Source of the DNA: a virus
IMG/VR virus record: IMGVR_UViG_3300021197_000168
Coordinates: 1-22,202 of that record
Reading direction: 5' to 3' (one strand)
Length of the DNA: 22,202 nt
The translations under genes and the position numbers were made by a program. Positions 1,729 to 14,876 of the stretch are shown here, in pieces. The number at the start of each line of letters is the position of its first letter. Position 1 is the first letter of the stretch. The notes under the pieces were generated by a model, which worked only from the letters and a program-made list of their open reading frames with translations, made no database searches and was not told the origin of the DNA.

Positions 1729-1908
1729 ATGAAGAAGAAATCCACTGTTAATAAAGCAGCTAACTACACAAAACCTAGTATGCGTAAAACTTTGTTTAAC
1801 TCGATTAAAGCAGGTGGCAAAGGTGGAAACCCAGGTCAGTGGTCTGCTCGTAAAGCTCAGATGTTAGCTAAACAATACAAAGCTAAAGGTGGAGGATACA
1901 AGACTTGA
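1729..1908 (+). CDS. Basic protein, first half of a split two-part family
   Basis: A 59-aa protein with AAGG at 1715-1718, 10 bases before its ATG. Its core is SIKAGGKGGNPGQWSARKAQ followed by MLAKQYKAKGGGYK. I recall this motif as the N-terminal half of a short basic protein found in phages, chlorella-type viruses and some bacteria (possibly DUF5872; not verified). There it is followed in the same chain by a KSLKKW...RYLPKKAW...ATNxxK segment. Here that second segment is a separate ORF beginning at 1905, in the -1 frame. The GGGY codons at the end of this ORF also provide the Shine-Dalgarno (GGTGGAGG, 1888-1895) for the second ORF. Function unknown; basic and soluble. Confidence 0.7.
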   Translation: MKKKSTVNKAANYTKPSMRKTLFNSIKAGGKGGNPGQWSARKAQMLAKQYKAKGGGYKT

Positions 1909-2168
1909 AAGCTCCTCAAAAATCTCTTAAGAAATGGAGTCAACAGAAGTGGAGAACTTCTGATGGATCACCATCTAAGGGTAAGAAGAGGTACTTGCCT
2001 GATAAAGCATGGAAAGCTTTAAGCCCTGGGGAAAAGGCTGCTACTAACAAAGCCAAAGCTGCAGGAAACAAAAAAGGAAAACAGTTTGTTGCCCAACCAA
2101 AAGGTGTAGCAAAGAAAGTAAAACCTTACAGAGCTAGTAAGGGAGGCCTAGCTAGAAAGAAAAAATAA
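1905..2168 (+). CDS. Basic protein, second half of the split family, TTG start
   Basis: An 87-aa Lys-rich protein. The TTG start at 1905 overlaps the previous stop (TTGA) and lies 9 bases after GGTGGAGG, so reinitiation or coupling is well supported; there is no ATG near the N terminus. It contains KSLKKWSQQKWRTSDG, then KRYLPDKAWKALSPGEKAATN and KGKQFVAQPKG, which match my memory of the C-terminal half of the same viral and bacterial family as its upstream partner. It ends YRASKGGLARKKK, a GGL plus lysine tail seen again at the C termini of the 207-aa protein (3300-3923) and the 1205-aa protein (10271-13888). The two halves probably act together. Function unknown. Confidence 0.7.
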   Translation: MKAPQKSLKKWSQQKWRTSDGSPSKGKKRYLPDKAWKALSPGEKAATNKAKAAGNKKGKQFVAQPKGVAKKVKPYRASKGGLARKKK

Positions 2169-2171
2169 AAT

Positions 2172-2861
2172 ATGTCGTTTCTTACTAGCAGTATACCGTA
2201 CTTCAAAGCTTGGGTACGTAGAGAATACACAAAGAACTTAGAAGATTACTACGGAGAGTTCTTACACGCTATGGTAATTGGTGTAACCACCATGCCAAAC
2301 AGGACTCTGAGTTTCCAAGTTATCTTCACAGGTTGTGAATCAGATTTTGATGACTCACCTAACGTACATGGTGGAGCAATGTGGGCAAGGATGCCATTGA
2401 CTGCACTTGTAGCAGATACTCCCTTAGAGGAGTGGCCTACAGAGTTACCACCGTACTTAGCACAACCCTGGGATTGTATGTCGCATACTCACTCAGTACA
2501 CAAATTAGAAAGAGCCTCACCTGCTCCTTGGATAGCAAAGATAGATGGTGAGTTTTATCCTGCAAAGTATTACTTCACTGTTGATTACACAGACAATGAA
2601 GTAGCTGACGATCCTGCACAACATAAACAATCTCACGTCTTAGAGTTGTTAGATGCAGGAGAGTACACAGGTAACATGGTTGCGTTACCCAATAACAGAG
2701 TGAGAGTAACTCACCCTGCATGGTTTGAAACTGGTGAAGGTGCTCCAGATTTTAGACCTAACCAGAACATATATAACTCGAAAGAAAACGTGGACTACGT
2801 ATGGGATACGCAACGAGTCTTTAACAATTTGTACAGTATTAATGGTGAGGAAGAACAATGA
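2172..2861 (+). CDS. Conserved marine-phage protein of unknown function
   Basis: A 229-aa soluble acidic protein starting 3 bases after the previous stop, with only an A-rich stretch rather than a clear Shine-Dalgarno. It has no signal peptide or long hydrophobic segment. It contains several His/Trp-rich stretches (HGGAMWARMPL, QPWDCMSHTHSVHKLE, RVTHPAWFETGEG) and ends in NIYNSKENVDYVWDTQRVFNN. I have a general memory of this type in uncultured marine phage genomes, always unannotated. The conserved-looking His and Trp could mark an active site or metal site, but no family motif is recognisable. The ATG of the repeat protein downstream overlaps its stop (ATGA), so it belongs to the same late transcript. 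Confidence 0.75.
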   Translation: MSFLTSSIPYFKAWVRREYTKNLEDYYGEFLHAMVIGVTTMPNRTLSFQVIFTGCESDFDDSPNVHGGAMWARMPLTALVADTPLEEWPTELPPYLAQPWDCMSHTHSVHKLERASPAPWIAKIDGEFYPAKYYFTVDYTDNEVADDPAQHKQSHVLELLDAGEYTGNMVALPNNRVRVTHPAWFETGEGAPDFRPNQNIYNSKENVDYVWDTQRVFNNLYSINGEEEQ

Positions 2862-3295
2862 AGAAAATAAAGAAAAAGGGCATGGCTAATGGCGGTGCTA
2901 TGATGAAGAAAAAAGGTATGTCCAAAGGCGGTGCTAACATGAAAAAGAAAGGCATGGCTAACGGTGGTGTATCAATGAAGAAAAAAGGCATGGCAGCAGG
3001 AGGATTAAAAGATCCTAGTGCAAATCAAACTGGTCTTAAAAAACTACCAACATCAGTTCGTAACAAGATGGGTTACATGAACGAAGGTGGCATGCCTAAA
3101 AAGAAAAAGGGCATGGCTAACGGTGGTGCTATGATGAAGAAAAAAGGTATGTCTAAAGGCGGTGCTAACATGAAAAAGAAAGCTTATGCCAAAGGCGGTA
3201 CAGTAGCTACTTACAACGTAGGTGGTATGGTTAAGTCTTCTGGCCCTCTTAACACAGGGATTAAAAAAGCCCCTGACACTTATAACAAGGATTAA
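2858..3295 (+). CDS. Lys/Gly/Met repeat protein with KKKGMxxGG units
   Basis: A 145-aa, very basic, low-complexity protein coupled to the gene before it (ATGA). It is built from units of about 12 residues, such as KKKGMANGGAMM, KKKGMSKGGANM and KKKGMANGGVSM, in two blocks (about residues 5-49 and 77-118). Between them lies a different segment, SANQTGLKKLPTSVRNKMGY. The C-terminal part has AYAKGG and YNVGGMVKSSGPL. Proteins rich in this motif are common in marine phage genomes but have no assigned role as far as I know. High charge and Gly content suggest a disordered, protamine-like or peptide-tag role, possibly in the capsid interior. The DNA blocks are near-identical direct repeats, so copy number probably varies between relatives. 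Confidence 0.7.
   Translation: MKKIKKKGMANGGAMMKKKGMSKGGANMKKKGMANGGVSMKKKGMAAGGLKDPSANQTGLKKLPTSVRNKMGYMNEGGMPKKKKGMANGGAMMKKKGMSKGGANMKKKAYAKGGTVATYNVGGMVKSSGPLNTGIKKAPDTYNKD
2871..3182 (+). repeat. 81-bp direct repeat pair inside the KKKGM protein gene
   Basis: Copy 1 is at 2871-2951 and copy 2 at 3102-3182. By eye they differ at three positions in 81, all synonymous third-base changes, while the spacer between them is partly unrelated. Each copy codes for about two KKKGMxxGG units. Such identity at the DNA level points to recent duplication or conversion. Confidence 0.85.
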
Positions 3296-3299
3296 TACA

Positions 3300-3923
3300 A
3301 TGGCTTCTTACAAAGATTATAAAAGTATCTCTGCCGCTAAAAAAGCAGGATCAATATATTACATGAATAAGCAAGGCAAGAAAATGCTTGCTGTAACAAA
3401 AGAAGATTTAGATGCTTGGAAGAAAAAGAACAAAGGTAAGTACAAAGGTTCTGCTCTTACAGCTTGGGCTAACGCAAAAGGTAAAAACATTAGTGGTGCT
3501 CCATCATCTTCAAAGAAACCTAAAGCACGTCCAGGTTCAGCCAAGGATGTTATCACAGTTGAAAAACTACCTCCTGCTTTTACTATACCAACTAAAGGTA
3601 AACAAGCTAAAGAAAGCATTGGAGAGCGAGAGTCTAGATCTAAGCAAGTAGACAAAGTTAAAAAAGTTGCTGAAGAAGGTTTAGCAAAAGCTACTAAGTT
3701 TGACGAATGGTACAAAAAGAACGGAAGTAAGTACAAAAATAGAGCAAGAGCTATGGAAGCCTATAAGATGGGTCCAGGTAGAACAGAAAGCACTAGGTAC
3801 GGAAACTCTAAAGGTAGCTTACAAAAAAAGAAAAAAGGTTATGCTAAAGGTGGAATGACTGACTATCGTAAGAAAGGAATGTTTTACGGTGGTGGTATGG
3901 CTAGGCCTTCTAAAAAAAGTTAA
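3300..3923 (+). CDS. Basic protein with internal duplication and KKKGYAKGGM tail
   Basis: A 207-aa Lys-rich protein. I chose the ATG at 3300 because AAGG (3287-3290) lies 9 bases upstream and the previous gene stops at 3295; a longer reading from 3222 would overlap that gene. A segment near the N terminus, WKKKNKGKYKGSALTAWANA, is echoed near the C terminus by WYKKNGSKYKNRARAMEAYK, an internal duplication of about 20 residues. The middle is Pro/Ser/Lys-rich with charged helix-like stretches. The C terminus, KKKKGYAKGGMTDYRKKGM then FYGGGMARPSKKS, carries the same motif as the preceding repeat protein. Function is unknown; a virion-interior or DNA-contacting role is only a guess. Confidence 0.7.
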   Translation: MASYKDYKSISAAKKAGSIYYMNKQGKKMLAVTKEDLDAWKKKNKGKYKGSALTAWANAKGKNISGAPSSSKKPKARPGSAKDVITVEKLPPAFTIPTKGKQAKESIGERESRSKQVDKVKKVAEEGLAKATKFDEWYKKNGSKYKNRARAMEAYKMGPGRTESTRYGNSKGSLQKKKKGYAKGGMTDYRKKGMFYGGGMARPSKKS

Positions 3924-3936
3924 AAAGTAATTAAAG

Positions 3937-3942
3937 TATAAT
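3937..3942 (+). promoter_or_regulatory. Possible -10 element (TATAAT) before the virion protein pair
   Basis: A perfect TATAAT lies 14 bases after the 3300-3923 gene, in an AT-rich gap. No convincing -35 hexamer is visible at the expected distance, so this may be chance in AT-rich DNA. It is supported only by its place in a gap before genes likely to be highly expressed. Confidence 0.3.
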
Positions 3943-3950
3943 AACTATAA

Positions 3951-3995
3951 GTGGTCAACCCACACAAATCTAATCTATTAAAGTGGTAAAACCAC
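3951..3995 (+). promoter_or_regulatory. Two tandem GTGG...CCAC hairpins in the leader of the next gene
   Basis: Hairpin 1 pairs GTGG (3951-3954) with CCAC (3960-3963). Hairpin 2 pairs GTGGT (3983-3987) with ACCAC (3991-3995) over an AAA loop. The Shine-Dalgarno AAGGA (3998-4002) follows at once, 8 bases before the ATG at 4011. Neither has a U-tract, so they look more like mRNA leader structures or operator-like repeats than terminators. Confidence 0.45.
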
Positions 3996-4010
3996 GAAAG
4001 GAATATAATT

Positions 4011-4595
4011 ATGACAACAACTACTTTTACAAAAGGTATTGAAGAGTACGAAGATAACGTAACCTTTGGTACAGGAATTACAGGCACTGGTCTTGTACAC
4101 TCATTTGGAACACGTAAGATCCAAACATTTGTAGGATCACTAGCAGCTACAGATACTGATACAGCATATGCAGACGGTGACGTTCTAGTAGAGCTAGGTG
4201 CTCTAGATACATCTTCACCCTCAAGTATTGTAACGCCATCTAAGTTTTTTATTCATAGAGCTTTGATAGGTATCACAACTGCTGCAGGTCAAACACTTGT
4301 AGGTGGTCTATCTCTTAGTGCCACTTCAGGTACAAATACTAATGCTGCTGTTTCTTCAGGAACAGAGATTGTGGGTGCAGGTGTAACATCTTTTAACGAA
4401 CAGTTAAGTGCTACACAGTCAATCACTGAGGTTGATGTAAACTTTAATAACACAGCAGGTAACTACCACATATTTGTACCTAATATTACTGCTGCTATAG
4501 CAAGTAAAAACTTGTACGCATTTGCTACTACTACGTTAAATGCTGACGCATCTGCAGGCCGATTTACTGTTGAGCTAGAATACTCAGTATATTAA
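4011..4595 (+). CDS. Probable virion (decoration or head-associated) protein, beta-rich
   Basis: A 194-aa protein rich in Thr, Ala, Gly, Ser and Val with few charges, typical of beta-structured phage virion proteins. There is no signal peptide or membrane segment. Repeated strand-like runs (SKFFIHRALIGITTAAGQTL, GNYHIFVPNITAAIAS, FTVELEYSVY) suggest a beta sandwich. The start is set by AAGGA 8 bases upstream. With its own leader structures and strong ribosome site it is likely well expressed. It resembles in style the capsid-associated protein at 16180-16716, though I see no clear sequence identity. A role in head decoration is inferred from composition and context only. Confidence 0.6.
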   Translation: MTTTTFTKGIEEYEDNVTFGTGITGTGLVHSFGTRKIQTFVGSLAATDTDTAYADGDVLVELGALDTSSPSSIVTPSKFFIHRALIGITTAAGQTLVGGLSLSATSGTNTNAAVSSGTEIVGAGVTSFNEQLSATQSITEVDVNFNNTAGNYHIFVPNITAAIASKNLYAFATTTLNADASAGRFTVELEYSVY

Positions 4596-4607
4596 GGGAG
4601 ATAATAA

Positions 4608-4919
4608 ATGTCAACTTCCGTAGGCACATTCCAACCTAATACGTTACAATGGAGTGTACAAACAAAACAAACCGTAGATAATACAGCAGCTAACACAAAA
4701 CATTTTACCTGCACTGGTTTTAAAGTTGTACACCTTCACGCTGACCAAGAGTTTCTAATTAACTTTGGCACTGCAGAAGCAAACTGTGGTGCTAACGATT
4801 TAGAATTAGAAGCAGGTAATTACACTATTGCAATACCTGACGCTATTGGTGATACTGTTATAATGAATATCTTAGCAGCAACCAGTGATAACGTAACTAT
4901 TAAAGTAGTACTTTCATAA
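4608..4919 (+). CDS. Small beta-rich probable virion protein
   Basis: A 103-aa protein, 12 bases after its neighbour, with GGGAG at 4596-4600 before the ATG. It alternates hydrophobic and polar residues (FKVVHLHADQEFLINFG, LEAGNYTIAIPDAIGDTVI, DNVTIKVVLS), as in a compact beta domain of the kind found in head fibers, decoration proteins or tail accessories. Two Cys (CTG, NCG) are present. It is probably translated with the 4011-4595 gene and may work with it. A hairpin follows its stop. No family recognised. Confidence 0.55.
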   Translation: MSTSVGTFQPNTLQWSVQTKQTVDNTAANTKHFTCTGFKVVHLHADQEFLINFGTAEANCGANDLELEAGNYTIAIPDAIGDTVIMNILAATSDNVTIKVVLS

Positions 4920-4925
4920 AAAGTA

Positions 4926-4954
4926 ACAACCCTGCTAAAACATAGTGGGGTTGT
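4926..4954 (+). terminator. Hairpin after the virion protein pair (terminator or attenuator-like)
   Basis: ACAACCC (4926-4932) pairs perfectly with GGGTTGT (4948-4954), 7 bp. An inner CTA/TAG (4935-4937 with 4943-4945) closes a small AAACA loop. The sequence after it, ATTAAC, is not a good U-tract, so full termination is doubtful; partial termination or 3'-end protection of the upstream message fits better. Confidence 0.5.
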
Positions 4955-4975
4955 ATTAACATAAGAAAGGTTAAT

Positions 4976-5233
4976 ATGAAACTTAAAGGCACTAAAGTAT
5001 TATCAGATAAAAATAAAGTAATTGCTGAAAATATTAATGGTGATTGGGTATCTAAAGATGACTCTGTTTCTATCTTTACTATTTTAGACTTTGTTAAAGA
5101 TGCTGAAGTAGAAGAAACAGAGATGGTTCGTGCTCGTAACGAAAAGGGTCACTACATAGCTGATGACCCCGATACTCCAGAGAACGAAGCTTGGACAACT
5201 AAGATTGTAAAAAAAGTTACAGGAAAGTCATAA
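4976..5233 (+). CDS. Small conserved phage protein of unknown function
   Basis: An 85-aa soluble protein with AAAGG at 4966-4970, 5 bases before the ATG. The N-terminal half reads like a small beta domain (MKLKGTKVLSDKNKVIAEN, GDWVSKDDSVSIFTILDFV). The C-terminal half has RNEKGHYIADDPDTPENEAW, a pattern (RNxKGxYxADDPxTPxxNEAW) that I recall from short proteins in marine phages and cyanophages. Function unknown; possibly a minor virion or head-assembly protein given its place between virion and packaging genes. Confidence 0.6.
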   Translation: MKLKGTKVLSDKNKVIAENINGDWVSKDDSVSIFTILDFVKDAEVEETEMVRARNEKGHYIADDPDTPENEAWTTKIVKKVTGKS

Positions 5234-5272
5234 CGGCATAGTTAGTTCTTTAATTAGGTTAGGAGTGCTTTG

Positions 5273-5280
5273 GGAGGAGG
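5273..5280 (+). promoter_or_regulatory. Strong Shine-Dalgarno GGAGGAGG without a standard start codon behind it
   Basis: GGAGGAGG is the strongest ribosome site seen in the window. It is followed by CTC GTT ATC GAT CCA. No ATG, GTG or TTG lies in the next 50 bases in the reading frame of the gene it should serve. GTT (5284) or ATC (5287) are the codons at start distance, 3 and 6 bases away. Confidence 0.7.
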
Positions 5281-5286
5281 CTCGTT

Positions 5287-5742
5287 ATCGATCCAGTTAC
5301 AATCATAGGTGGAGCTACCGTAGCTTTTAATGCTTTGAAGAAAGGTTTCCAATTCGGAAAAGATCTTCAAGAAATGGGTGGTCAACTAAATCAGTGGGCT
5401 AGTAGCATGAGCGACTTGTCCTACTTAGAACAGAAAAATAAGAACCCCCCTTGGTGGAAAGCTATGGGAGGCTCTGTTGAAGCAGAAGCTCTAGAGATAT
5501 TCACAGCTAAAAAGAAAGCTGAGGCCATGCGAAAAGAGCTAAAAGACTGGATTAGTTTTACGTATGGGCCATCCGTTTGGGAAGAACTAGTAGCAACTGA
5601 AGGTAGAATACGTAAACAAAAGAAAGAACAAGAGTACCGTAAAGCAGAGGTACAAGAAGCAATAATTACTTGGGGTATCTCAGGTGTTCTTCTTTCAGTA
5701 GGTGCAGGTACTCTAGGTTTTATAATTTATATGGTGGCATAA
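5287..5742 (+). CDS. Conserved phage protein with C-terminal membrane anchor; start codon non-standard
   Basis: The frame is open from 5263. The first standard start is a TTG at 5335, but the sequence before it, IDPVTIIGGATVAFNALKKG, matches the N terminus I recall for this family (MIDPVT..), so translation should begin at GTT 5284 or ATC 5287, 3 or 6 bases after GGAGGAGG. From ATC it would be 151 aa. The middle is charged and helical (QKNKNPPWWKAM, EIFTAKKKAEAMRKELKDW, GRIRKQKKEQEYRKAEVQEA). The C terminus is one hydrophobic segment (ITWGISGVLLSVGAGTLGF). Similar proteins are common near structural genes of marine T7-like and T4-like phages, with no firm function; a holin-like or membrane-bound assembly role is possible. 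Its stop overlaps the small terminase start (TAATG). Confidence 0.7.
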   Translation: MDPVTIIGGATVAFNALKKGFQFGKDLQEMGGQLNQWASSMSDLSYLEQKNKNPPWWKAMGGSVEAEALEIFTAKKKAEAMRKELKDWISFTYGPSVWEELVATEGRIRKQKKEQEYRKAEVQEAIITWGISGVLLSVGAGTLGFIIYMVA

Positions 5743-6104
5743 TGGTAAAAAACTTAACAGAGAAACAACAGAAATTCCTCGATGTTTTATTTGAGGAAGC
5801 ACAAGGAGATCCTGTGCAAGCAAAAAAACTAGCAGGTTACTCTGACGGTGTTGCTTCTACACAGATAGTAAATAGTCTGACAGATGAGATAGCAGATCTA
5901 ACAAAAAAATTTATAGCACAATCATCAACAAAAGCAGCGTATACTATGTTCTCTGTTATGGCAGATCCTACAGATCTAGGTGTAAAAGAAAAGATGTTAG
6001 CAGCAAAAGATATTTTAGATCGTGCAGGTTTTACTAAAACAGATAAAGTAGAAGTAAAAACATCAGAACCTTTGTTTATTTTACCTGCGAAAGATAATGA
6101 GTAA
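5742..6104 (+). CDS. Terminase small subunit
   Basis: A 120-aa protein beginning at the ATG that overlaps the previous stop. The N-terminal region LTEKQQKFLDVLFEEAQGDP then QAKKLAGYSD is the helix-turn-helix type of phage small terminases. The C-terminal half has KEKMLAAKDILDRAGFTKTD, also typical of these proteins, in which it lies in the oligomer core or tail. It would bind the packaging site on phage DNA and load the large subunit. Directly followed by the HTH protein and large terminase. The family usually has 120-180 aa, so length is normal. Confidence 0.8.
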   Translation: MVKNLTEKQQKFLDVLFEEAQGDPVQAKKLAGYSDGVASTQIVNSLTDEIADLTKKFIAQSSTKAAYTMFSVMADPTDLGVKEKMLAAKDILDRAGFTKTDKVEVKTSEPLFILPAKDNE

Positions 6105-6594
6105 AAGAGCTTCAGAAGCAGACCACCCAACCAAAGTTGATTGGCAGATACCACTACAAGGAAAACTAGGAGAGTGGTATCCTGTCATAAGGGTAGGGAG
6201 ACACGTACCCTTTGGATATAAACAGGATAAAGAAGATGACATGCTTCTCATTCCTATCCCTGAAGAATTAGAACTTTTAGAAAAAGCAAAGAAGTTTCTT
6301 AAAGATTACAGTGTAAGACAAGTAGCTAAGTGGCTGTCTGATCAATCTGGTAGAGACATCTCACATGTAGGGTTATATAAACGTGTCAGAATGGAAGAAA
6401 AAAGGCGTAGAGCTTCCTCAAACTACAAGCAGTATGCCAAAAAATACAAAGAAGCGGCAAGGAAAAGCCAGAAGATTGAAGAGAAAAGACTTGGTGGTAG
6501 AAGTACCAGAAGTCTTGCCACAGATGAGGGATACATCAAACTCGAAAGAGGGGAGTGTTGCCCCTTCTGTGGACAAACAAGAGGTGATATTTGA
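6097..6594 (+). CDS. HTH protein linked to terminase (resolvase-like DNA-binding fold)
   Basis: A 165-aa protein whose ATG lies 8 bases inside the terminase small subunit gene. The N-terminal part (WQIPLQGKLGEWYPVIRVGR, VPFGYKQDKED) is followed by a helix-turn-helix at about residues 71-98 (YSVRQVAKWLSDQSG, ISHVGLYKRVR), resembling resolvase-type HTH domains. A basic coiled helix follows (YAKKYKEAARKSQKIEEKRL). The last 30 or so residues, ending ECCPFCGQTRGDI, overlap the large terminase reading frame and may not be under normal constraint. I recall this HTH plus helix in marine phages either directly before or joined to the large terminase, so it probably helps DNA recognition in packaging. 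Confidence 0.7.
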   Translation: MSKRASEADHPTKVDWQIPLQGKLGEWYPVIRVGRHVPFGYKQDKEDDMLLIPIPEELELLEKAKKFLKDYSVRQVAKWLSDQSGRDISHVGLYKRVRMEEKRRRASSNYKQYAKKYKEAARKSQKIEEKRLGGRSTRSLATDEGYIKLERGECCPFCGQTRGDI

Positions 6595-7969
6595 ACCTAA
6601 CCCTGGGCCACAAACTAAGTTTCTAGCATCTACTGAACAGGAAGTACTATATGGAGGGGCAGCAGGTGGGGGCAAGTCGTATTCGTTGGTTGCTGATCCA
6701 GTTAGATATTTTACGAATCCACATGCACGAATGTTACTTGTTCGTAGGAGTACAGAAGAGCTACGAGAACTTATTTCTGTAAGCAAACAACTTTATCCAA
6801 AGGCTGTGCCAGGAATAAAGTTCATGGAAAGAGATAAGACTTGGGTAGCACCTAACGGTGCAACACTTTGGATGTCATACCTTGATCGTGATGATGATGT
6901 TATGAGATACCAAGGACAAGCTTTTAACTGGATAGGCTTTGACGAGTTGACCCAATGGCCTACAGACTATGCTTGGACATACATGCGTTCAAGGTTACGT
7001 GCTACAAAAGCCAGTGGTCTTCCTCTCTACATGAGAGCTACAAGTAACCCTGGAGGCCCAGGACACAGATGGGTAAAAAAAGTATTTATTGATCCAAGTA
7101 CACCAGACGAATCTTTTTGGGCAACAGACGAAAACGGAGAAGTAATAAAGTGGCCTAAAGGTCACACAAGGGAAGGTGAACCCCTATTCAAAAGAAAGTT
7201 TATTCCTGCTACGTTATTTGATAATCCTTACCTGTCTGAAGATGGTATGTACGAAGCAAACCTTTTGTCTTTACCAGAACATCAAAGAAGACAGTTACTT
7301 GAAGGGGATTGGGATATAAATGAAGGTGCAGCTTTCCCAGAGTTTAACAGGCGTATCCACGTAGTAGATTCCTATGAAGTACCTAGTAACTGGACTCGAT
7401 TTAGAGCTTGTGACTACGGATACGGATCTCACACAGGCGTTGTCTGGTTCGCAGTTGTTCCAGGGTCTGAGCAGCTAATAGTCTACAGAGAGCTATACGT
7501 TTCTAAGGTAATTGCTACTGATTTGGCTGACATGATCCTGGGCATTGAAGACGGAGAGAAACTAAGATACGGAGTATTAGACTCTTCTCTTTGGCATAAT
7601 CGTGGTGACACTGGCCCTAGTTTAGCAGAACAAATGATTATGAAAGGTTGCCGTTGGAGGCCATCTGACAGATCAAAAGGTTCTAGGGTAGCAGGTAAAA
7701 ACGAGATACACAGACGATTACAAGTGGACGAATTTACGGAAGAGCCAAGGCTTGTTATATTTAATAACTGCACAAATCTTATCTCTCAACTACCGTCTAT
7801 ACCTTTGGATAAAAAAAATCCTGAAGATGTAGACACTCACGCAGAAGATCATTTGTATGACGCACTTAGATACGGTGTAATGACACGTCCAAGAAGCAGC
7901 GTATTTGATTTTGATCCTGCTTCTCAAAGATCAGGCTTTCAAGCTTCAGATCCCACTTTTGGTTATTAA
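6524..7969 (+). CDS. terL: Terminase large subunit (packaging ATPase and nuclease)
   Basis: Motor protein that pumps DNA into the procapsid and cuts it. Numbered from the ATG at 6524 (481 aa): Walker A GGAAGGGKS at 44-52, Walker B WIGFDE at 136-141, coupling motif ATSNPGG at 172-178, and nuclease acids D297 (ACDYGYG), D353 (VLDSS) and D446 (LYDALRYG). The start is uncertain: the frame is open to a GTG at 6383 and has an ATG at 6434, but these lie deep in the conserved part of the HTH gene, and none has a good ribosome site. I chose 6524 because the upstream codons look like a shadow of the HTH helix, while the domain proper (EVIFEPNPGPQTKFL) begins at about residue 20. A frameshifted HTH fusion is also possible. 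All ATPase and nuclease motifs are intact. Confidence 0.92.
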   Translation: MRDTSNSKEGSVAPSVDKQEVIFEPNPGPQTKFLASTEQEVLYGGAAGGGKSYSLVADPVRYFTNPHARMLLVRRSTEELRELISVSKQLYPKAVPGIKFMERDKTWVAPNGATLWMSYLDRDDDVMRYQGQAFNWIGFDELTQWPTDYAWTYMRSRLRATKASGLPLYMRATSNPGGPGHRWVKKVFIDPSTPDESFWATDENGEVIKWPKGHTREGEPLFKRKFIPATLFDNPYLSEDGMYEANLLSLPEHQRRQLLEGDWDINEGAAFPEFNRRIHVVDSYEVPSNWTRFRACDYGYGSHTGVVWFAVVPGSEQLIVYRELYVSKVIATDLADMILGIEDGEKLRYGVLDSSLWHNRGDTGPSLAEQMIMKGCRWRPSDRSKGSRVAGKNEIHRRLQVDEFTEEPRLVIFNNCTNLISQLPSIPLDKKNPEDVDTHAEDHLYDALRYGVMTRPRSSVFDFDPASQRSGFQASDPTFGY

Positions 7970-7978
7970 GGATTTCCT

Positions 7979-10090
7979 ATGGAAGAAGACGATATTTTTG
8001 ACACAGATGAACTATCAATGGATGAAGATAACTCTTCATATATAGAAGATACTAGTGATGATAAATTAAACAGTGATCCTGCAACAGGAACTATTCTAGG
8101 TTTTGTAGAAGAAAGGTACAACAAAGCTGAAAAGGCTAGATACTCTGACGAACAAAGATGGATTAAATCTTATCAGAACTACAGAGGTATCTATGGTCCT
8201 GACGTGCAGTTTACTTCCACAGAAAAATCTAGAGTATTTGTTAAAGTAACTAAGACTAAAGTTCTTGCAGCTTACGGTCAAATTGTTGATGTTTTATTTG
8301 GAAATCACAAGTTTCCTATTTCAATCAACCCTACTAAACTTCCTGACGGTGTAGCAGAAGCTGTGCACTTTGAAACAAATCCTCAGATAAAAGAAGCTAC
8401 TTCACAAGGACTTACTCCTGATGATACAAAGTTACAGCCTGGGGAAACTATAATTGATTTAAGAGAAAGACTAGGAGGTTTACGTAATAAACTAGAGCCT
8501 GTTATTGACGATCTTAGAGAAGGTGAAGGACAAACACCATCACAACCTAGTTATCATCCTGCTATGGTAGCAGCAAAGAAAATGGAAAAGAAAATCCATG
8601 ATCAACTAGACGAATCCAACGCAAGCAAACAATTGCGTAACACAGCCTTTGAAACTGCTCTGTTTGGTACAGGCATAATGAAAGGCCCATTTGCTCTTGA
8701 TAAAGAATATCCTAACTGGGATGATCAAGGCAACTACTCCCCAATGTACAAAACTATTCCTCAGACTGGTTCTGTAAGTATATGGAACTTTTATCCTGAT
8801 CCTGACGCTAATAACATGGATGAGGCTGAGTACGTTATTGAACGACATAAAATGTCTAGGTCACAAATAAGAGGTTTAAAAAACAGACCTTTCTTTAGAG
8901 CTAACGCCATAGATACTGCAATTAGTATTGGTGAGTCCTACAATAAAGAATGGTGGGAACAAATCATGGAAGATGCAGATCAAGAAACAAAAGCAGAAAG
9001 GTTTAACGTTCTTGAGTTCTGGGGTTACGTAGACACAGATATTTTAGAAGGTCATGACATAGAAATTCCAAAAGAGTTAAAAGATCAAGACCAAGTATCA
9101 GTAAACATTTGGGTCTGTAACGGACAAGTTATACGTCTTGTAATGAATCCTTTTAACCCTGCTATACTTCCGTACTATGCCGTACCTTACGAAGTAAACC
9201 CTTATAGTTTCTTTGGTGTAGGTATTGCTGAAAACATGGATGACACACAAACTCTTATGAATGGTTTTATGAGAATGAGTGTAGATAACGCTGCACTATC
9301 AGGCAACTTGCTTATTGAAGTAGATGAAACTAACTTAGTTCCAGGTCAAGACCTGAGTGTGTATCCTGGCAAGGTCTTTCGTAGACAAGGCGGTGCTCCT
9401 GGACAGGCTATCTTTGGCACTAAGTTTCCTAACGTCAGTAACGAAAACATGCAGATGTTTGATAAAGCAAGGGTATTATCAGATGAATCAACTGGCTTTC
9501 CATCTTTCGCTCATGGTCAAACAGGCATACAAGGAGTGGGTCGTACTGCTTCTGGTATTTCTATGCTTATGTCTGCTGCCAACGGTAGCATACGTACTGT
9601 TGTTAAAAATATAGACGATTATTTATTATCACCACTAGCAAAAGCTTTCTTTAGTTTTAACATGCAGTTTGATTTTGATCCTAATATTAAAGGTGATTTA
9701 GAAGTAAAAGCCGAAGGTACAAACTCTCTTATGGCTAACGAGGTTCGTAGTCAAAGGCTCATGCAGTTTCTTGGCGTTGTCCAGAACCCTGCTCTTGCAC
9801 CTTTTGCAAAAATGGATTATATTATCAGAGAGATTGCAAACTCTATGAGTCTTGATCCTGATAAAGTTGCTAACTCAATGACAGAGGCAGCTATACAAGC
9901 TGAGATCTTAAAGAAATTTCAAGCAGAAAATCCACCACCTCCACAGGCAGCACCACCACAACAAGGAGCACCTGCAGGAGCACAAGCACAAGATACTCAA
10001 GGATCTGGTGGTGGGCAGATAGGTACAGGATCTGTTCCTACCCCTGGTGAACCTGGATTCCCTGCTAACACAGGACAAGGACAAGGATGA
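7979..10090 (+). CDS. Portal protein
   Basis: A 703-aa protein directly behind the large terminase, with TAAGGA 6 bases before the ATG. It forms the ring at the capsid vertex through which DNA enters and leaves. Length is close to that of P22-type portals (about 725 aa) and well above siphovirus portals. Evidence is position, size and the recognisable segments VKVTKTKVLAAYGQIVDVLF, YEVNPYSFFGVGIAENMDDT and STGFPSFAHGQTG, which recall portals of marine podoviruses. The first 35 residues are strongly acidic, and the last 50 or so (from about residue 650) are Pro/Gln/Gly-rich (NPPPPQAAPPQQGAPAGAQ), probably a flexible tail. Its stop overlaps the next start (ATGA). Confidence 0.87.
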   Translation: MEEDDIFDTDELSMDEDNSSYIEDTSDDKLNSDPATGTILGFVEERYNKAEKARYSDEQRWIKSYQNYRGIYGPDVQFTSTEKSRVFVKVTKTKVLAAYGQIVDVLFGNHKFPISINPTKLPDGVAEAVHFETNPQIKEATSQGLTPDDTKLQPGETIIDLRERLGGLRNKLEPVIDDLREGEGQTPSQPSYHPAMVAAKKMEKKIHDQLDESNASKQLRNTAFETALFGTGIMKGPFALDKEYPNWDDQGNYSPMYKTIPQTGSVSIWNFYPDPDANNMDEAEYVIERHKMSRSQIRGLKNRPFFRANAIDTAISIGESYNKEWWEQIMEDADQETKAERFNVLEFWGYVDTDILEGHDIEIPKELKDQDQVSVNIWVCNGQVIRLVMNPFNPAILPYYAVPYEVNPYSFFGVGIAENMDDTQTLMNGFMRMSVDNAALSGNLLIEVDETNLVPGQDLSVYPGKVFRRQGGAPGQAIFGTKFPNVSNENMQMFDKARVLSDESTGFPSFAHGQTGIQGVGRTASGISMLMSAANGSIRTVVKNIDDYLLSPLAKAFFSFNMQFDFDPNIKGDLEVKAEGTNSLMANEVRSQRLMQFLGVVQNPALAPFAKMDYIIREIANSMSLDPDKVANSMTEAAIQAEILKKFQAENPPPPQAAPPQQGAPAGAQAQDTQGSGGGQIGTGSVPTPGEPGFPANTGQGQG

Positions 10091-10293
10091 AGAATTTAAA
10101 ACCTTTAGTAAACGACAACAAATTATGGAACTCGTTTAACGAAGAACTGGATCGAAGACTAAATCACGTCCATATTCAAATGGAACAAACTATAAAACAA
10201 GAAGACTTGTTTAGACTACAGGGTGAAGCAAGAGCTTTTCGTAGACTAAAGTTTTTAAGGGATGAAGTGAATGGTGCTGAACATACAGGGTAA
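10087..10293 (+). CDS. Short conserved helical protein between portal and ejection protein
   Basis: A 68-aa charged, helical protein whose ATG overlaps the portal stop. It reads as two helices (LVNDNKLWNSFNEELDRRLN, QEDLFRLQGEARAFRRLKFL). I recall the same pattern (LKPLV...LW..F..EL, then LYRxQGExxALRRLKxLRDEV) directly after portal genes in many marine podoviruses, so the linkage looks conserved. No function is known to me; a portal-associated or assembly cofactor is the natural guess. Its last 23 bases overlap the next gene. Confidence 0.75.
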   Translation: MKNLKPLVNDNKLWNSFNEELDRRLNHVHIQMEQTIKQEDLFRLQGEARAFRRLKFLRDEVNGAEHTG

Positions 10294-13200
10294 TCAGACT
10301 GAACCTGCAACAACTATTGGACGTTTTGGTCTTGAGAAAGAAGATCCTACGATAGGTATAGATCTTCCTGAAGGTCTTTATAACCAAGTTGATACTTACT
10401 TAGAGTCTGCACAATCTAGTCCAGATGCTTTTTATCCTGAACTACCATCAGAAACATCAACAGAACCTAGTGTCGTATCACAGACAGATAAACTATTTAA
10501 TAAGAAACCAAAACCTAGACCACGTAAACCAATACCAAATATAAGTCCAAAGATAAGACCTGGCTCAGTAAGCCCTATAGATAAAATTTTAGAACTTAAC
10601 TATCTTTTAGAAGGTACACGTGATCCTAACTCAAAAAAATCAAAAATTCTTTCAGGTTTAAATGAGCTTACTGAAACTGGTAAAAAGGCTATAAAAGGTT
10701 TTATGGATACGGCTGCAGGTGGAGAAACAAGTTTTAATCCTGCAGTAGATGCTTGGTGTGCAGCTTTTGTTGCTCACGTTCTTAGTGAACTTGGAGCAGA
10801 TCCTTTAAAATCAAAAGATAGGTATGACAGACTCAGAGCAGATAAATACAGAAATTATGGATCAAAGGTAGAAAACTTTGCAGATGCCAAAGAAGGCGAT
10901 ATAATTGTTTTTGATTTAGCTAATAATGACGGAATAGGAGATCATGTAGCTTTTTACTCAGGAGAAAGAATAACATCTCAAGGGGGTAAAAGCTCTTATA
11001 CTGGTAAAGAATACATTAATGTGGTTGGTGGTAATCAAGGTATAGGGGAAGTAAGTATAAGAGAAAACGCTTTTGGTTACACAAAAGATAAAGTTTTAGC
11101 AATCAGAAGAATTACGTATAACGACATTGACTTTGACTTTACTCAAGAGATGGCTAAACAAAACCCTGTGTTTAAAAAGTTTATTCCTGAGTATGCTTCC
11201 CTTAATCCTAATGATGATGATGATGACTTACCATCCTTTGATGAAGGTGGTCTAGCAGAAGATGATCAAATGGGAATACTTGGTTTTACTGCTCAGGGAG
11301 TACAACAAGAGGTAGACAAGTACGTAGACAAAGATGCTGAAGCTGCAAAAGAAATAACGTTTAAAGATGCAGCTAAGTTTGTAGCAGAACTAACACCTGT
11401 CATAGGTGACGCTATGGCTGCTAAAGAAGTGTATGACGAACTACAAAAAGATGATCCTAACTACTTACTAGCAGGAGCTTTAGGTGGTGCAACTATAATA
11501 GGTTTGATTCCTGGTATAGGAGATGCAGCAGCAGCAGCAATAAGAACAGGAGCTAGAAAAGCTTTAGATGTAGCTAAACGTGTTGAGGTAGACCCAGACG
11601 CAGTTGGCATGATGGGGGGTAGTATTAGAATAAGAATAACTAATAAAGATGCAGATGTAAAAGAAGCAGAAAGACTTATTGATGATCCTGACGCACTAAA
11701 GGCTTGGCAAGAAACAGAAGGTGGAAAAGGTAAAAGACAAGAAAATCCTGCAGATTCTGAAGCAGCAGCACAAGCTCTTATAGAAGGTAGTATTACTTCT
11801 AAAGAAGCTCGTAAACGTGTTGGTGATGCCATACCTCCACCAAAAGAATACACTGCTGATGAAGTAAGAAAGATGATGCCCACTGTAACTGATGTGACAG
11901 GAGCAATGGGTAAAAAAGCAAGAGACTATGGTATACTTGGTGTAAAAGGTTTTGATTTAAAATTAAAAAAAGGTCAATTAATAGGAACACGTTTAGATAT
12001 TCCTGCTTATAACAAGTATGATAAGTGGGTTGTTTCTATACACGATGGTGGCACTAAAGAAAAAATAAATTTAAGAGGATCTGTTCTAGGATATGGACAA
12101 GCAATAAGACTGAAGAATGTTAGGTTTGGTTCTGATGCTACCACTGCTTTAGATATTGCTAGAGGTAAACGTACTGATCGAAAGACATTGCAAGATGCTA
12201 CAGATAAAAAGACTGGTAAACCTGCCAAACAAGACAAAGCTACAATAGCTCGTGCTGTTGGTGAGTATGTTCCAGAAGATCCTTACAAACTACAGGAAAT
12301 GGCTGCATCTATTATAGAGTCTGGTTCAAAAGAATGGACACAAGTAGGAATGAATCCTTACAGAGGAAGTCAGTTCTATGACAAGAAAACAGGAAAGATT
12401 ATATTTGATGCTGAAGAGATGATTCAAGTTGGTCCTCTTGTCCTAGCCAAAAATGCTAAAGTTGCTACTATTTCTGATTTAAAAGAAATGGCAGTAAGAA
12501 CAAAAGATGGTAAACTGAGAATGTTTAATGAAGGTGGTACAGCAATGAAAGATCAAATGCAGATGGCGTTTAAAGATGATGGCATGACTAAAGATCCTGT
12601 CTCAGGTAACGAAGTTCCTCCAGGCTCGTTAGCCAAAGAAGTACGAGATGATATTCCTGCCATGTTATCCGAAGGTGAATATGTTGTTCCTGCTGATGTT
12701 CTTAGGTACTACGGAGTAAACTTCTTTGAGAACTTACGTAACCAAGCAAAGTCTGGTCTACAGACTATGGAAAACACAGGTAGAATTGGTGGTGATCCAA
12801 TGTCTCCTCAACAAGTACAACAGAACATGAGTGGTCAACCTATGACCAATGCTCCACCTGCACAACCTGTAGCTGCTAACACTGGTCCTGCCATGTTAGG
12901 TCAACAATCTCAAACAGGTACAAACACGGCAACAACAGGACAAGCTACACAGAATACGTTTGCTCCTATGAACTTTTCAACTGTAGGGTTCAGTCAGTAT
13001 CAACAGCCTACTCAGAAACCTACTAGTGTTACCTCAACTAAAACGTATGTTAACGCAGATAACACTTCTGACACAAGGATTGTCACGTATGTAGATGGTG
13101 TAGTAACACCTCCTGCTGACTCTAAATATACTAGACCACCTTATTACTTGATGGGTTCACCTGCGTTAGCAGAAGCTATTAAGGGTGCTCCTAAAGGAGG

Positions 13201-13888
13201 AGGCGGTGGAGGAGGAGGTGGAGGTGGTGGTGACACAGATCCACCAGATCCTAATGCTTGGGCAAGAGAGATTACAGATCCTTTAGAATGGGCAAGAGAA
13301 AACCTAAAAACTGAAGGTAAAAGTGTTTTAGAACTTGGTGTATCTGTTGCAAGAACCAGAGCTTTAGCATTTGTTGCAGAGGCTGAAGGTCTTGAAAATC
13401 TGGCATTTGACTTAAGAAAAGAAGCAAGAAAAGTAGTAGACGAAAAGAAATTATTACAGCTTGTTCCTGAAGGTGGAATGAACGGAAGTGTATATGCTTC
13501 TCCTCTTGGAAAAGAAAGAGACTTAGTAAACAGTATCTTTAGCATTAAAGACAAAGAAAAAAATATTACAAAATCTCAAAGTAGCTCAGGTGTATTTGAC
13601 AGTTTTAAAACTTCTGCTGCACAAACTGAAAAAGACGTTAAGGCCGCAAAAGAAAAAAGAAAGAAATCAGGAACATCTGCAGCTGAAAAAGCAGCAGCTA
13701 TGAGAGATGCAAGGACAACAGATAAACAAGACGGAAAAAGCACAGGAGGTTTTAAAGACGATAGTGCAAATCCACTCTCCTCAGCAGATAGAGTTTCAAA
13801 TTATCAATCTAATGGTCAAATGTTTAGAGGCCAAGGAGGTAGGGCTGAAGGTGGACTGATGCAAAGGAAGAAAAAGAAAGGCAAATAA
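10271..13888 (+). CDS. 1205-aa multidomain, probably ejected virion protein with cell-wall hydrolase domain
   Basis: Start ATG 10271 has AAGGG 9 bases upstream. After a Pro/Lys-rich lead, residues about 105-280 form a CHAP/NlpC-like (TIGR02594-type) peptidase with likely catalytic Cys163 (AWCAAFVAHVL), His225 (GDHVAFYSG) and Asn255 (VVGGNQG). A hydrophobic Gly/Ala segment follows (LLAGALGGATIIGLIPGIGD, 399-418), which could enter membranes. Residues about 530-730 (RLDIPAYNKYDKWVV, QVGMNPYRGSQFYD, QVGPLVLAKNA) recall a domain of phage polyvalent proteins. Next come PGSLAKEVRDDIPAMLSEGE (about 784-803), a Gln/Pro/Thr-rich linker, twelve glycines (976-987) and a charged helical C terminus ending AEGGLMQRKKKKGK. 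Its place between portal and scaffold, its size and its wall hydrolase suggest an internal protein injected with DNA that opens the wall. The function is inferred. Confidence 0.75.
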   Translation: MVLNIQGNQTEPATTIGRFGLEKEDPTIGIDLPEGLYNQVDTYLESAQSSPDAFYPELPSETSTEPSVVSQTDKLFNKKPKPRPRKPIPNISPKIRPGSVSPIDKILELNYLLEGTRDPNSKKSKILSGLNELTETGKKAIKGFMDTAAGGETSFNPAVDAWCAAFVAHVLSELGADPLKSKDRYDRLRADKYRNYGSKVENFADAKEGDIIVFDLANNDGIGDHVAFYSGERITSQGGKSSYTGKEYINVVGGNQGIGEVSIRENAFGYTKDKVLAIRRITYNDIDFDFTQEMAKQNPVFKKFIPEYASLNPNDDDDDLPSFDEGGLAEDDQMGILGFTAQGVQQEVDKYVDKDAEAAKEITFKDAAKFVAELTPVIGDAMAAKEVYDELQKDDPNYLLAGALGGATIIGLIPGIGDAAAAAIRTGARKALDVAKRVEVDPDAVGMMGGSIRIRITNKDADVKEAERLIDDPDALKAWQETEGGKGKRQENPADSEAAAQALIEGSITSKEARKRVGDAIPPPKEYTADEVRKMMPTVTDVTGAMGKKARDYGILGVKGFDLKLKKGQLIGTRLDIPAYNKYDKWVVSIHDGGTKEKINLRGSVLGYGQAIRLKNVRFGSDATTALDIARGKRTDRKTLQDATDKKTGKPAKQDKATIARAVGEYVPEDPYKLQEMAASIIESGSKEWTQVGMNPYRGSQFYDKKTGKIIFDAEEMIQVGPLVLAKNAKVATISDLKEMAVRTKDGKLRMFNEGGTAMKDQMQMAFKDDGMTKDPVSGNEVPPGSLAKEVRDDIPAMLSEGEYVVPADVLRYYGVNFFENLRNQAKSGLQTMENTGRIGGDPMSPQQVQQNMSGQPMTNAPPAQPVAANTGPAMLGQQSQTGTNTATTGQATQNTFAPMNFSTVGFSQYQQPTQKPTSVTSTKTYVNADNTSDTRIVTYVDGVVTPPADSKYTRPPYYLMGSPALAEAIKGAPKGGGGGGGGGGGGDTDPPDPNAWAREITDPLEWARENLKTEGKSVLELGVSVARTRALAFVAEAEGLENLAFDLRKEARKVVDEKKLLQLVPEGGMNGSVYASPLGKERDLVNSIFSIKDKEKNITKSQSSSGVFDSFKTSAAQTEKDVKAAKEKRKKSGTSAAEKAAAMRDARTTDKQDGKSTGGFKDDSANPLSSADRVSNYQSNGQMFRGQGGRAEGGLMQRKKKKGK

Positions 13889-13904
13889 ATAATTATAAGG
13901 CTAC

Positions 13905-13918
13905 TCAGCTACGGCTGA
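13905..13918 (+). promoter_or_regulatory. UACG tetraloop hairpin before the scaffold gene
   Basis: TCAGC-TACG-GCTGA forms a 5-bp stem closed by a C(UACG)G loop, one of the most stable RNA tetraloops. It lies in the 52-base gap between the 1205-aa gene and the scaffold gene, 22 bases before the scaffold ATG. With no U-tract it is more likely an mRNA stability or processing element than a terminator. Confidence 0.6.
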
Positions 13919-13940
13919 CCCCAACAGAAAAGGAAAAAAT

Positions 13941-14876
13941 ATGCCTGAATTAACAGAAGTAGAAAAACCTAAAACAGCAGGTTTTGTAGATCGTGGATTC
14001 AACCACTCAAAAAAACAAAAGCGTATTGAAGAAGAAGAGCAAGAGATTGCCAAGCTAGAAGCAGAGGCTCGAGGTGAAGAAGTTGTTGAAGATAAACCCA
14101 GTGGCGAGAATACTGAGGACACAGAAGTTCAAGCAACAGACGATACCAAACAAGAAGAAGCCACAGAGGAAACCGAAACACAAGAAGATGATTCAGAGTT
14201 AACTGCTGAAGAAAAGTCTTTTAAGAAACGTTACGGTGACTTGCGTAGACACATGCAAGAAAAAGAAAAAGAGTGGAACGAAAGAATCCAAGCTCTTGAA
14301 AAGCGTAAAGCATCAGACACAATAATACCACCAAAAACTCCTGAAGAGATTGATGAGTGGGCAAAACAATATCCTGATGTAGCAGGTATCTTTAACAAGA
14401 TAGCAGAAGAAAAAGCTAAACAGATGTTTAGTAAAGCTGAATCAAGATTAAAAGAATTAGATGATGCACACAGCGAAGCTCTAAGATTAAAAGCTGAGAA
14501 CGTCATACGTAAGTCTCATGATGACTTTGACGAATTAAAAGCTTCAGAAGAGTTTCACAACTGGGTAGATGTACAACCCAAGTGGGTTAAGGATGCACTG
14601 TATGAAAACTCAGATGATCCTGCTTCAGTTGTTCGTGTTATTGATCTTTATAAAGTTGATAAAGGTATTAGTGTAGCAGACAAGCGTGATAGCAAAAAAG
14701 CTGCAGCTTCTACCATTACCAAAGGAACTCGTACTTCTATTGACGCAAAAGGTACTTCAGGTCAAATAAAAGAGTCTGACGTAGCTAAAATGTCAACAAA
14801 GGAGTTTGAGGAACGTCAAGATGAAATTGCCGAAGCAATGAAAAAAGGTAAATTTATCTATGACGTATCTAATTAG
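13941..14876 (+). CDS. Capsid scaffolding protein
   Basis: A 311-aa, strongly acidic and helical protein directly upstream of the major capsid gene. It would guide coat assembly and then leave the procapsid. The N-terminal half is Glu/Thr-rich and coiled-coil-like (RIEEEEQEIAKLEAEARGEE; EKSFKKRYGDLRRHMQEKEK). The middle has TPEEIDEWAKQYPDVAGIFN and then FHNWVDVQPKWVKDALYENS, segments I recognise from marine podovirus scaffolds. The C terminus is basic and then ends EERQDEIAEAMKKGKFIYD, as expected for the coat-binding end. The start has AAAAGGA 6 bases upstream. A promoter begins at the base after its stop codon, so the capsid gene can be transcribed apart from it. Confidence 0.85.
   Translation: MPELTEVEKPKTAGFVDRGFNHSKKQKRIEEEEQEIAKLEAEARGEEVVEDKPSGENTEDTEVQATDDTKQEEATEETETQEDDSELTAEEKSFKKRYGDLRRHMQEKEKEWNERIQALEKRKASDTIIPPKTPEEIDEWAKQYPDVAGIFNKIAEEKAKQMFSKAESRLKELDDAHSEALRLKAENVIRKSHDDFDELKASEEFHNWVDVQPKWVKDALYENSDDPASVVRVIDLYKVDKGISVADKRDSKKAAASTITKGTRTSIDAKGTSGQIKESDVAKMSTKEFEERQDEIAEAMKKGKFIYDVSN

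What the first reader, a model, noticed from the sequence alone, without database searches (positions are those of the whole stretch)
2138..13888. A short GG[LM] plus lysine motif shared by the ends of unrelated virion-region proteins
Seen in sequence: the split-family protein ends KGGLARKKK (near 2138-2165), the repeat protein is made of KKKGMxxGG units (2858-3295), the 207-aa protein ends KKKKGYAKGGM then GGGMARPSKKS (3300-3923), and the 1205-aa protein ends AEGGLMQRKKKKGK (13888), with inner copies FDEGGLAEDD (residues 323-332) and MFNEGGTAMKD (751-761). The rest of these proteins is not alike. Inference: this may be a portable tag, for example a signal for packing into the capsid or for binding scaffold, portal or DNA, with the repeat protein being almost pure tag. 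I know of no described function for it.
Basis: partly seen in the sequence, partly recalled or inferred. Interest (0 to 1): 0.8.

Follow-up and report, generated by a model that had tools for sequence, protein, structure and literature searches.

The report
Swappable C-terminal tags on phage proteins
In one of the commonest groups of ocean viruses that infect bacteria, many unrelated late proteins end in the same few short lysine- and glycine-rich peptides; these look like swappable address labels, probably for getting proteins into the virus particle, but what they bind has not been tested.

Summary
The window is part of an HMO-2011-type marine podovirus. Three of the four named proteins end in GG[LM]+Lys peptides beyond whole-protein composition (P 0.0001-0.006); the fourth is mostly KKKGxxxGG repeats. 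Unanchored DNA scans of 2.9 million viral contigs show several distinct C-terminal caps. A (NKGGLMxKKKK): 115/115 matches lie within 26 residues of a stop. C (DMRKTGLF[KR]): 37/39 end one residue before the stop. B (GGxxxCGAS) and D (STGxLNTGI) behave alike. 160 of 165 capped loci carry HMO-2011-type packaging genes; cellular genomes give no real case. In relatives the same body (phrog_14910) ends with no tag, A, B, D or A+C (at least 12 changes on its tree), and one genome carries cap C on three unrelated proteins with different codons. The inner copies in the 1205-aa protein are acidic and belong to a different, tape-measure-like element. My best reading is a docking motif that recruits late and ejection proteins into the procapsid, comparable to the basic C-terminus of T7 gp16 or P22 scaffold; DNA binding is the main rival. 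No tag peptide string was found in 5.39 million papers. Function is untested.

The parts
1905..2168 (+). 87-aa basic protein of family phrog_14910 (MKAPQKSLKKW...) with C-terminal cap A; tag KGGLARKKK at 2139-2165
   Evidence: phrog_14910 E=1.4e-34; relatives with the same body end with no tag (22), A (9), B (7), D (9), A+C (1) or other (2); tree counts
2858..3295 (+). 145-aa repeat protein: KKKGMxxGG units plus mini-modules (GLKKLPTSVRNKMGYMNEGG) and C-terminal cap D (NVGGMVKSSGPLNTGIKKAPDTYNKD, 3215-3292)
   Evidence: no PHROG or Pfam match
3300..3923 (+). 207-aa protein (MASYKDYKSISAAKKAG... family) with tag stretch KKKKGYAKGGMTDYRKKGMFYGGGMARPSKKS at 3825-3920 (cap C plus an A-like end)
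   Evidence: 18-sequence family alignment; tail predicted disordered, pLDDT 45-49, N-terminal mini-domain 75-82
10271..13888 (+). 1205-aa post-portal protein: NlpC/P60-like stretch, tape-measure-like element, cap A at the C-terminus (AEGGLMQRKKKKGK, 13844-13885)
   Evidence: phrog_21825 endolysin E=9e-7 at residues 151-230; 30 of 39 non-redundant tails of the post-portal family carry GG+Lys ends; tails listed
12593..12715 (+). DPVSGNEVPPGSLAKEVRDDIPAMLSEGEYVVPADVLRYYG element (residues 775-815) shared with tape measure proteins
   Evidence: tblastn: 120 phage records, many of those listed annotated as tape measure proteins; seven PHROG tape-measure families match the positional homologue in HTVC103P, best E=3e-11, and two match a core fragment from L283, best E=4.5e-7
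11237..11266 (+). inner acidic copy FDEGGLAEDD: not counted as a tag
   Evidence: acidic context; same style as the conserved [DE]GG[LI]xDDG stretch before the core in relatives
12521..12553 (+). inner copy MFNEGGTAMKD: not counted as a tag; it sits just before MKDQMQMAF, which starts a separate ORF in some relatives
13941..14876 (+). putative scaffolding protein (phrog_13678), acidic after residue 21; candidate acidic partner (context)
   Evidence: net charge -15 over 90 residues; no correlation with tag presence, n=20
5742..10090 (+). small terminase, large terminase and portal genes (context that places the window in HMO-2011-type phages)

Best explanation
Shown: a set of short, exchangeable C-terminal peptide modules (caps A-D, often preceded by KKKGYxKGG units) is attached to unrelated late proteins of HMO-2011-type phages, namely small basic proteins encoded upstream of the terminase genes and the large protein encoded between portal and scaffold. 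Conservation is mainly at the protein level. Inferred: the modules are disordered docking motifs that recruit their carriers into the growing procapsid by binding a shared partner inside it (scaffold, coat N-arm or portal), mainly through lysines, with the specific cap residues (DxRKxGLF, STGxLNTGI, CGAS) tuning the site. The large protein would then be an ejection (pilot) protein, with a peptidoglycan-hydrolase-like stretch, a tape-measure-like element and a basic C-terminus. The small proteins would be co-packaged internal proteins, and the repeat protein a multivalent bridge made almost wholly of docking units.
For: Strict C-terminal placement: A 115/115 and C 37/39 in unanchored scans. About 29 body clusters carry caps, plus 42 tagged ORFs with almost no body; one is an HNH endonuclease (L044, phrog_4578 E=1e-6, Pfam HNH_3 E=4e-5). 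Caps change at least 12 times on the phrog_14910 tree and tag presence at least 6 times. L343 has cap C on three unrelated neighbouring proteins with different codons. 160/165 capped loci carry HMO-2011-type terminase, portal, scaffold or coat genes. In the two complete genomes examined across the replication arm (CRP-9, HMO-2011) no clear cap lies there. The post-portal protein looks like an ejection protein: tape-measure families and an endolysin family. Precedents: T7 gp16's five basic C-terminal residues are needed for infectivity (PMC8954989); P22 scaffold's basic C-terminus binds coat (PMC9962691); P22 scaffold's acidic N-loop helps gp16 assembly (PMC12005531). A head-and-packaging protein, phrog_1645, is encoded beside tagged genes in HMO-2011. 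Tail predicted disordered.
Against: No virion proteomics or binding data exist here. Cap A is missing from the post-portal protein of HMO-2011, CRP-1, CRP-2, CRP-3, CRP-13 and CRP-603, so it is not essential there, though every one of those genomes has some tag-like tail elsewhere. Scaffold N-loop acidity does not differ between tagged and untagged genomes (n=20). Coat, portal, scaffold, terminase and tail proteins carry no tag. An HNH nuclease is not an obvious virion cargo. Lysine-rich tails fit DNA binding equally well.
Confidence: 0.38

Rival explanations
1. The tags are nucleic-acid-binding or condensing tails: Lys/Gly-rich disordered ends that coat or compact phage DNA late in infection, inside the virion or on the ejected genome. 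The repeat protein would be a protamine-like condenser.
For: High Lys and Gly content; pure-repeat proteins are common; carriers are small basic proteins and an HNH nuclease; some carriers hold Cys4 zinc-like modules. T7 gp16-C binds DNA (PMC8954989).
Against: Caps B-D conserve specific non-basic residues at the very C-terminus (DxRKxGLF, STGxLNTGI, CGAS), which non-specific DNA binding does not need; no known DNA-binding family matched; placement is strictly terminal.
Confidence: 0.3
2. The conserved ends are mostly DNA-level linkers: conserved 3' ends of genes that promote recombination between phages, with the peptide as by-product.
For: In cap A the Gly codons are GGC in 146 of 185 cases (79%) against 16% inside the same proteins; a conserved hairpin follows the post-portal gene; bodies are mosaic.
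Against: Cap C uses many synonymous codons with invariant amino acids, also between three genes of one genome; Gly codons of small-protein tags match background (GGT 0.55 vs 0.56); the window's cap A uses GGT GGA, not GGC GGC.
Confidence: 0.1
3. The tags serve another late function outside the particle, such as membrane or host-target binding, lysis timing, or late-gene control; location in the late arm is coincidental.
For: Small tagged genes lie near lysis and endolysin-like genes, and no virion data exist.
Against: A tag is also on the post-portal, ejection-like protein; linkage is to packaging genes in 160/165 loci.
Confidence: 0.15
4. GG[LM] marks processing sites: a protease cuts after GG and releases Lys-rich peptides, the repeat protein being a polyprotein.
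For: Double-glycine followed by L/M recurs in register; the post-portal protein has an NlpC/P60-like (papain-like) stretch in this window.
Against: No separate protease gene was recognised among the proteins scanned; cap C ends exactly one residue before the stop and has no GG after it; N-terminal parts of the post-portal protein vary widely.
Confidence: 0.05

Closest known systems
T7 gp16 ejection protein, basic C-terminus (PMC8954989)
   Same: Large ejection-type protein with N-terminal peptidoglycan hydrolase and a short positively charged C-terminus needed for infectivity.
   Different: No sequence homology found here; in T7 the tail is on one protein, here related tags sit on many unrelated proteins; gene order differs.
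P22 scaffold (gp8) C-terminal coat-binding region (PMC9962691) and acidic N-loop (PMC12005531)
   Same: Basic C-terminal stretch binds an acidic partner to bring protein into a procapsid; HMO-2011 coat is annotated as P22-type (PF11651).
   Different: P22's is a helix-turn-helix on the scaffold itself; here tails are predicted disordered, Gly-rich, and sit on other proteins.
Encapsulin cargo-loading peptides (PMC11866011, PMC8346489)
   Same: Short peptides on unrelated cargo direct it into an HK97-fold shell.
   Different: From general knowledge their consensus is a hydrophobic GSLxIG-type; here Lys-rich with several alternative caps; loading is unproven.
T4 capsid targeting sequence (from general knowledge)
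   Same: Short portable peptide sends internal proteins to the prohead.
   Different: T4's is N-terminal and removed by the gp21 protease; these are C-terminal and no cleavage is known.
Tape measure proteins of siphophages
   Same: The D[DS][IV]PAxLSxGE[FY]V element is shared with the post-portal protein.
   Different: The carrier lies between portal and scaffold of a podovirus; the tag itself is not part of that element.

Membership tests
HMO-2011-type marine podoviruses | HMO-2011-type terminase, portal, scaffold, coat gene set in conserved order | tested here: met
   79% DNA identity to CRP-9 over portal/terminase; gene order matches HMO-2011 and CRP-9; group described in PMC8528129
P22-like scaffold coat-binding region | basic residues at the extreme C-terminus | tested here: met
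   AEGGLMQRKKKKGK etc.
P22-like scaffold coat-binding region | C-terminal helix-turn-helix | tested here: not met
   207-aa protein tail has no helix in the model, pLDDT 45-49 (shallow alignment)
T7 gp16-like ejection proteins | N-terminal peptidoglycan-hydrolase-like domain plus basic C-terminus in one large protein | tested here: met
   phrog_21825 E=9e-7 at residues 151-230; Lys tail
T7 gp16-like ejection proteins | sequence homology to gp16/gp15 families | tested here: not met
   only the endolysin PHROG matched
T7 gp16-like ejection proteins | present in virion and ejected | not testable with these tools
   no proteomics held
Tape measure proteins | shared D[DS][IV]PAxLSxGE[FY]V element | tested here: met
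Tape measure proteins | encoded with long-tail genes and sets tail length | tested here: not met
   gene lies between portal and scaffold of a podovirus-type genome
Encapsulin cargo-loading peptides | C-terminal portable peptide on unrelated proteins | tested here: met
Encapsulin cargo-loading peptides | hydrophobic GSL-type consensus | tested here: not met
   caps A-D are Lys/Gly-based with other conserved residues
T4 capsid targeting sequence | N-terminal, protease-cleaved | tested here: not met
   placement is C-terminal; cleavage not testable
Pfam KGG stress repeat / AT-hook type families | profile match | tested here: not met
   no Pfam match to the repeat protein at E<=0.1

The most novel reading that the evidence does not exclude
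HMO-2011-type phages use a combinatorial code of C-terminal docking peptides: each cap (A, B, C, D) is read by a different site in the assembling particle, so any protein, including an HNH nuclease, can be loaded by acquiring a cap. This would be a cargo-loading system of a tailed phage with several interchangeable addresses.
Probability: 0.2. Interest if true: 0.85.

Novelty: new variant of a known kind. Interest (0 to 1): 0.62.

Why it matters
[quoted passage not shown] A shared, exchangeable C-terminal tag groups about 29 otherwise unconnected protein bodies into one functional class and gives a direct test in cultured phages (CRP-9, CRP-207, CRP-13, HMO-2011). If it loads cargo, it is a phage counterpart of encapsulin cargo peptides and possibly a ready-made tag for packing proteins into P22-type shells. 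It also suggests that the unknown post-portal protein is an ejection protein with a tape-measure-like element.

Tried and rejected
(1) Shine-Dalgarno explanation: AAR-GGN-GGN plus ATG can look like SD plus start, and four of the six cellular hits are near the start of their frames, but GGAGG occurs in only 1 of 74 phage tags, with GGC GGC dominating. (2) Programmed frameshifting on the Lys run: A-AAA-AAG in the right frame in only 3/74, with scattered extension lengths in both shifted frames. (3) Scaffold acidity co-varying with the tag: no relation, n=20, p=0.29 and 0.18. (4) First cap-B pattern had the wrong spacing and gave only chance hits; the corrected one worked. (5) tblastn of a bare tag peptide in annotated phages found nothing, possibly because of the low-complexity filter. 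(6) The phrog_17747 family end KAKGGGYK looks tag-like but is part of that family's own conserved sequence and is excluded. (7) PDB searches: one non-significant hit (KIF13B CAP-Gly, E=0.16) for the core profile and none for the 207-aa family. (8) The structure model of the tape-measure-like core is of modest quality (pLDDT 71, pTM 0.35), so no fold search was run. (9) Literature: none of six tag or core peptide strings occurs in the library.
Full report
What the window is. The 22.2-kb record is a virus fragment. Its terminase and portal genes are 79% identical in DNA to Roseobacter phage CRP-9, and the gene order matches the HMO-2011-type group of marine podoviruses. The HMO-2011 coat is annotated as P22-type. 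The finding covers three small genes upstream of the terminase genes and the large gene between portal and scaffold.

Observation. Every quoted peptide is present at the stated place. Whole-protein shuffles give P = 0.001, 0.006 and 0.0001 for the three non-repeat tails. Shuffling only the last 25 residues gives 0.004, 0.07 and 0.036. So in the window alone the effect is real but moderate; the strength comes from relatives. A motif-free test on 1,100 ORFs from 83 portal-selected loci asked which 6-residue words are shared by unrelated families. The top words are GYNKGG, NKGGMA, GGMVKS, NCGASM and CGASNP, mostly near the C-terminus. In the same loci the tails are concentrated in a few family groups, and 36 of 41 families have none. 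The words from GQWSARKAQ to KGGGYK belong to phrog_17747, not to the tag.

Caps are strictly C-terminal. Exact, unanchored DNA patterns were scanned over 2.9 million viral contigs. Cap A (N-K-G-G-[LF]-M-x-K-K-K): 115 of 115 in-frame matches start 10-26 residues before a stop; these include overlapping loci, with 74 distinct sequences used for codons. Cap C (D-M-R-K-T-G-[LF]-F): 37 of 39 end one residue before the stop. Cap D (S-T-G-x-h-N-T-G-I): most matches 10-19 residues from the stop are real caps following GG; the rest are chance hits in other proteins. Cap B (K-G-G-xxx-C-G-A-S): about 15 of 26 are real, 17-21 residues from the stop. In 84,980 cellular genomes the cap A pattern gives six matches, none a C-terminal tag of a long protein.

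Caps are portable. 277 distinct tagged ORFs fall into about 29 body clusters plus 42 with almost no body; a few singletons are chance ORFs. Carriers include an HNH endonuclease. The phrog_14910 body, present in the window with cap A, ends in relatives with nothing (22), A (9), D (9), B (7), A+C (1) or other (2). On a tree of the body alone this needs at least 12 changes of cap and 6 gains or losses. One genome (L343) has cap C on three unrelated neighbouring proteins, written with different codons.

Caps belong to one phage module. Although the scans did not select for phage type, 160 of 165 capped loci contain HMO-2011-type terminase, portal, scaffold, coat or post-portal genes. In the complete genomes examined the tails lie upstream of the terminase or at the end of the post-portal gene; no clear cap lies in the replication arms of CRP-9 or HMO-2011. 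Cultured isolates with recognisable tails: CRP-9, CRP-13, CRP-1, CRP-2, CRP-207, CRP-603, CRP-3 and HMO-2011; ctYwJ313 (an uncultured assembly) and HTVC103P have only weak ones.

Protein-level selection, with one oddity. Cap C keeps its residues while synonymous codons vary, and Gly codons in small-protein tags equal background. In cap A of the post-portal protein the two Gly codons are GGC in 79% of cases against 16% elsewhere in the same proteins. This is unexplained. The alternating AAG/AAA pattern may avoid poly-A slippage. Shine-Dalgarno and frameshift explanations were tested and fail.

The inner copies. In the 1205-aa protein EGGLAEDD and NEGGTAMKD are acidic. Relatives show a conserved [DE]GG[LI]xDDG stretch before DPVSGNEVPPGS...EVRDDIPAMLSEGEYVVPADV. 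That element matches tape measure proteins of siphophages in tblastn and in PHROGs (seven tape-measure families for the positional homologue in HTVC103P, best E=3e-11; two for an L283 fragment). With the endolysin-like stretch this suggests an ejection protein.

Mechanism. Shown: disordered-looking, portable C-terminal peptides on late proteins. Inferred: docking into the procapsid. The closest functional precedents are T7 gp16, whose five basic C-terminal residues are needed for infectivity (PMC8954989), P22 scaffold's basic coat-binding C-terminus (PMC9962691), and P22 scaffold's acidic N-loop, which helps gp16 assembly (PMC12005531). Against: scaffold acidity does not track the tag, several genomes lack cap A on the post-portal protein, and no virion data exist. 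DNA binding remains a close rival; specific non-basic cap residues argue against it as the whole story.

Known or new. None of six tag or core peptide strings occurs in 5.39 million open papers, and no Pfam or PHROG model describes the tags. The kind of thing, a short portable peptide that targets proteins to a capsid, is known from encapsulins and, from general knowledge, T4; the sequence, the multiplicity of caps and the phage group are new. I therefore call it a new variant of a known kind, conditional on function.

Noticed in passing
window 13897-13921 (+): Conserved RNA hairpin AUAAGGCUAC-UCAGC-UACG-GCUGA-CCCC between the post-portal gene and the scaffold gene; found in 126 loci, 87 distinct copies with compensatory arm changes (CCAGC/GCUGG 52, UCAGC/GCUGA 18, CCAGG/CCUGG 3, CUAGC/GCUAG 2), often UACG, UAAG or UUCG loops; no Rfam match.
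   Followed up: partly
window 12593-12715; HTVC103P gp79 (L003 26674-27969): Tape-measure-like element inside a podovirus protein encoded between portal and scaffold; in about a quarter of distinct cases the core lies within the first 80 residues of its ORF.
   Followed up: partly
cap A loci L267-L376: Glycine codons of the tag are GGC in 146 of 185 cases against 16% elsewhere in the same proteins; no explanation found.
   Followed up: partly
window 2858-3295; L069 5934-6305; L285 656-1069; L195 6646-7098: Small late proteins are mosaics of recurring 15-35-residue mini-modules: VRNKMGYM, VPFYAADGxGKM, GMxALKKAAPxVAKKMGY, HRMPDGTMMK, EF-hand-like PDFLDIDKDGD, DnaJ-like CPKCKGxGCSHCGGKGYH.
   Followed up: partly
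L044 711-1043 (+): HNH endonuclease-like protein with an inner EKGGLVKK and a C-terminal KGGYVVCGASNPGTHKRGK cap.
   Followed up: no
L081 3632-3802 (+): Small late protein matching Pfam DUF5872 (E=1.6e-10).
   Followed up: no
window 2172-2861 (+): 229-aa protein matching phrog_3704, annotated ferredoxin (auxiliary metabolic), E=8.8e-27.
   Followed up: no
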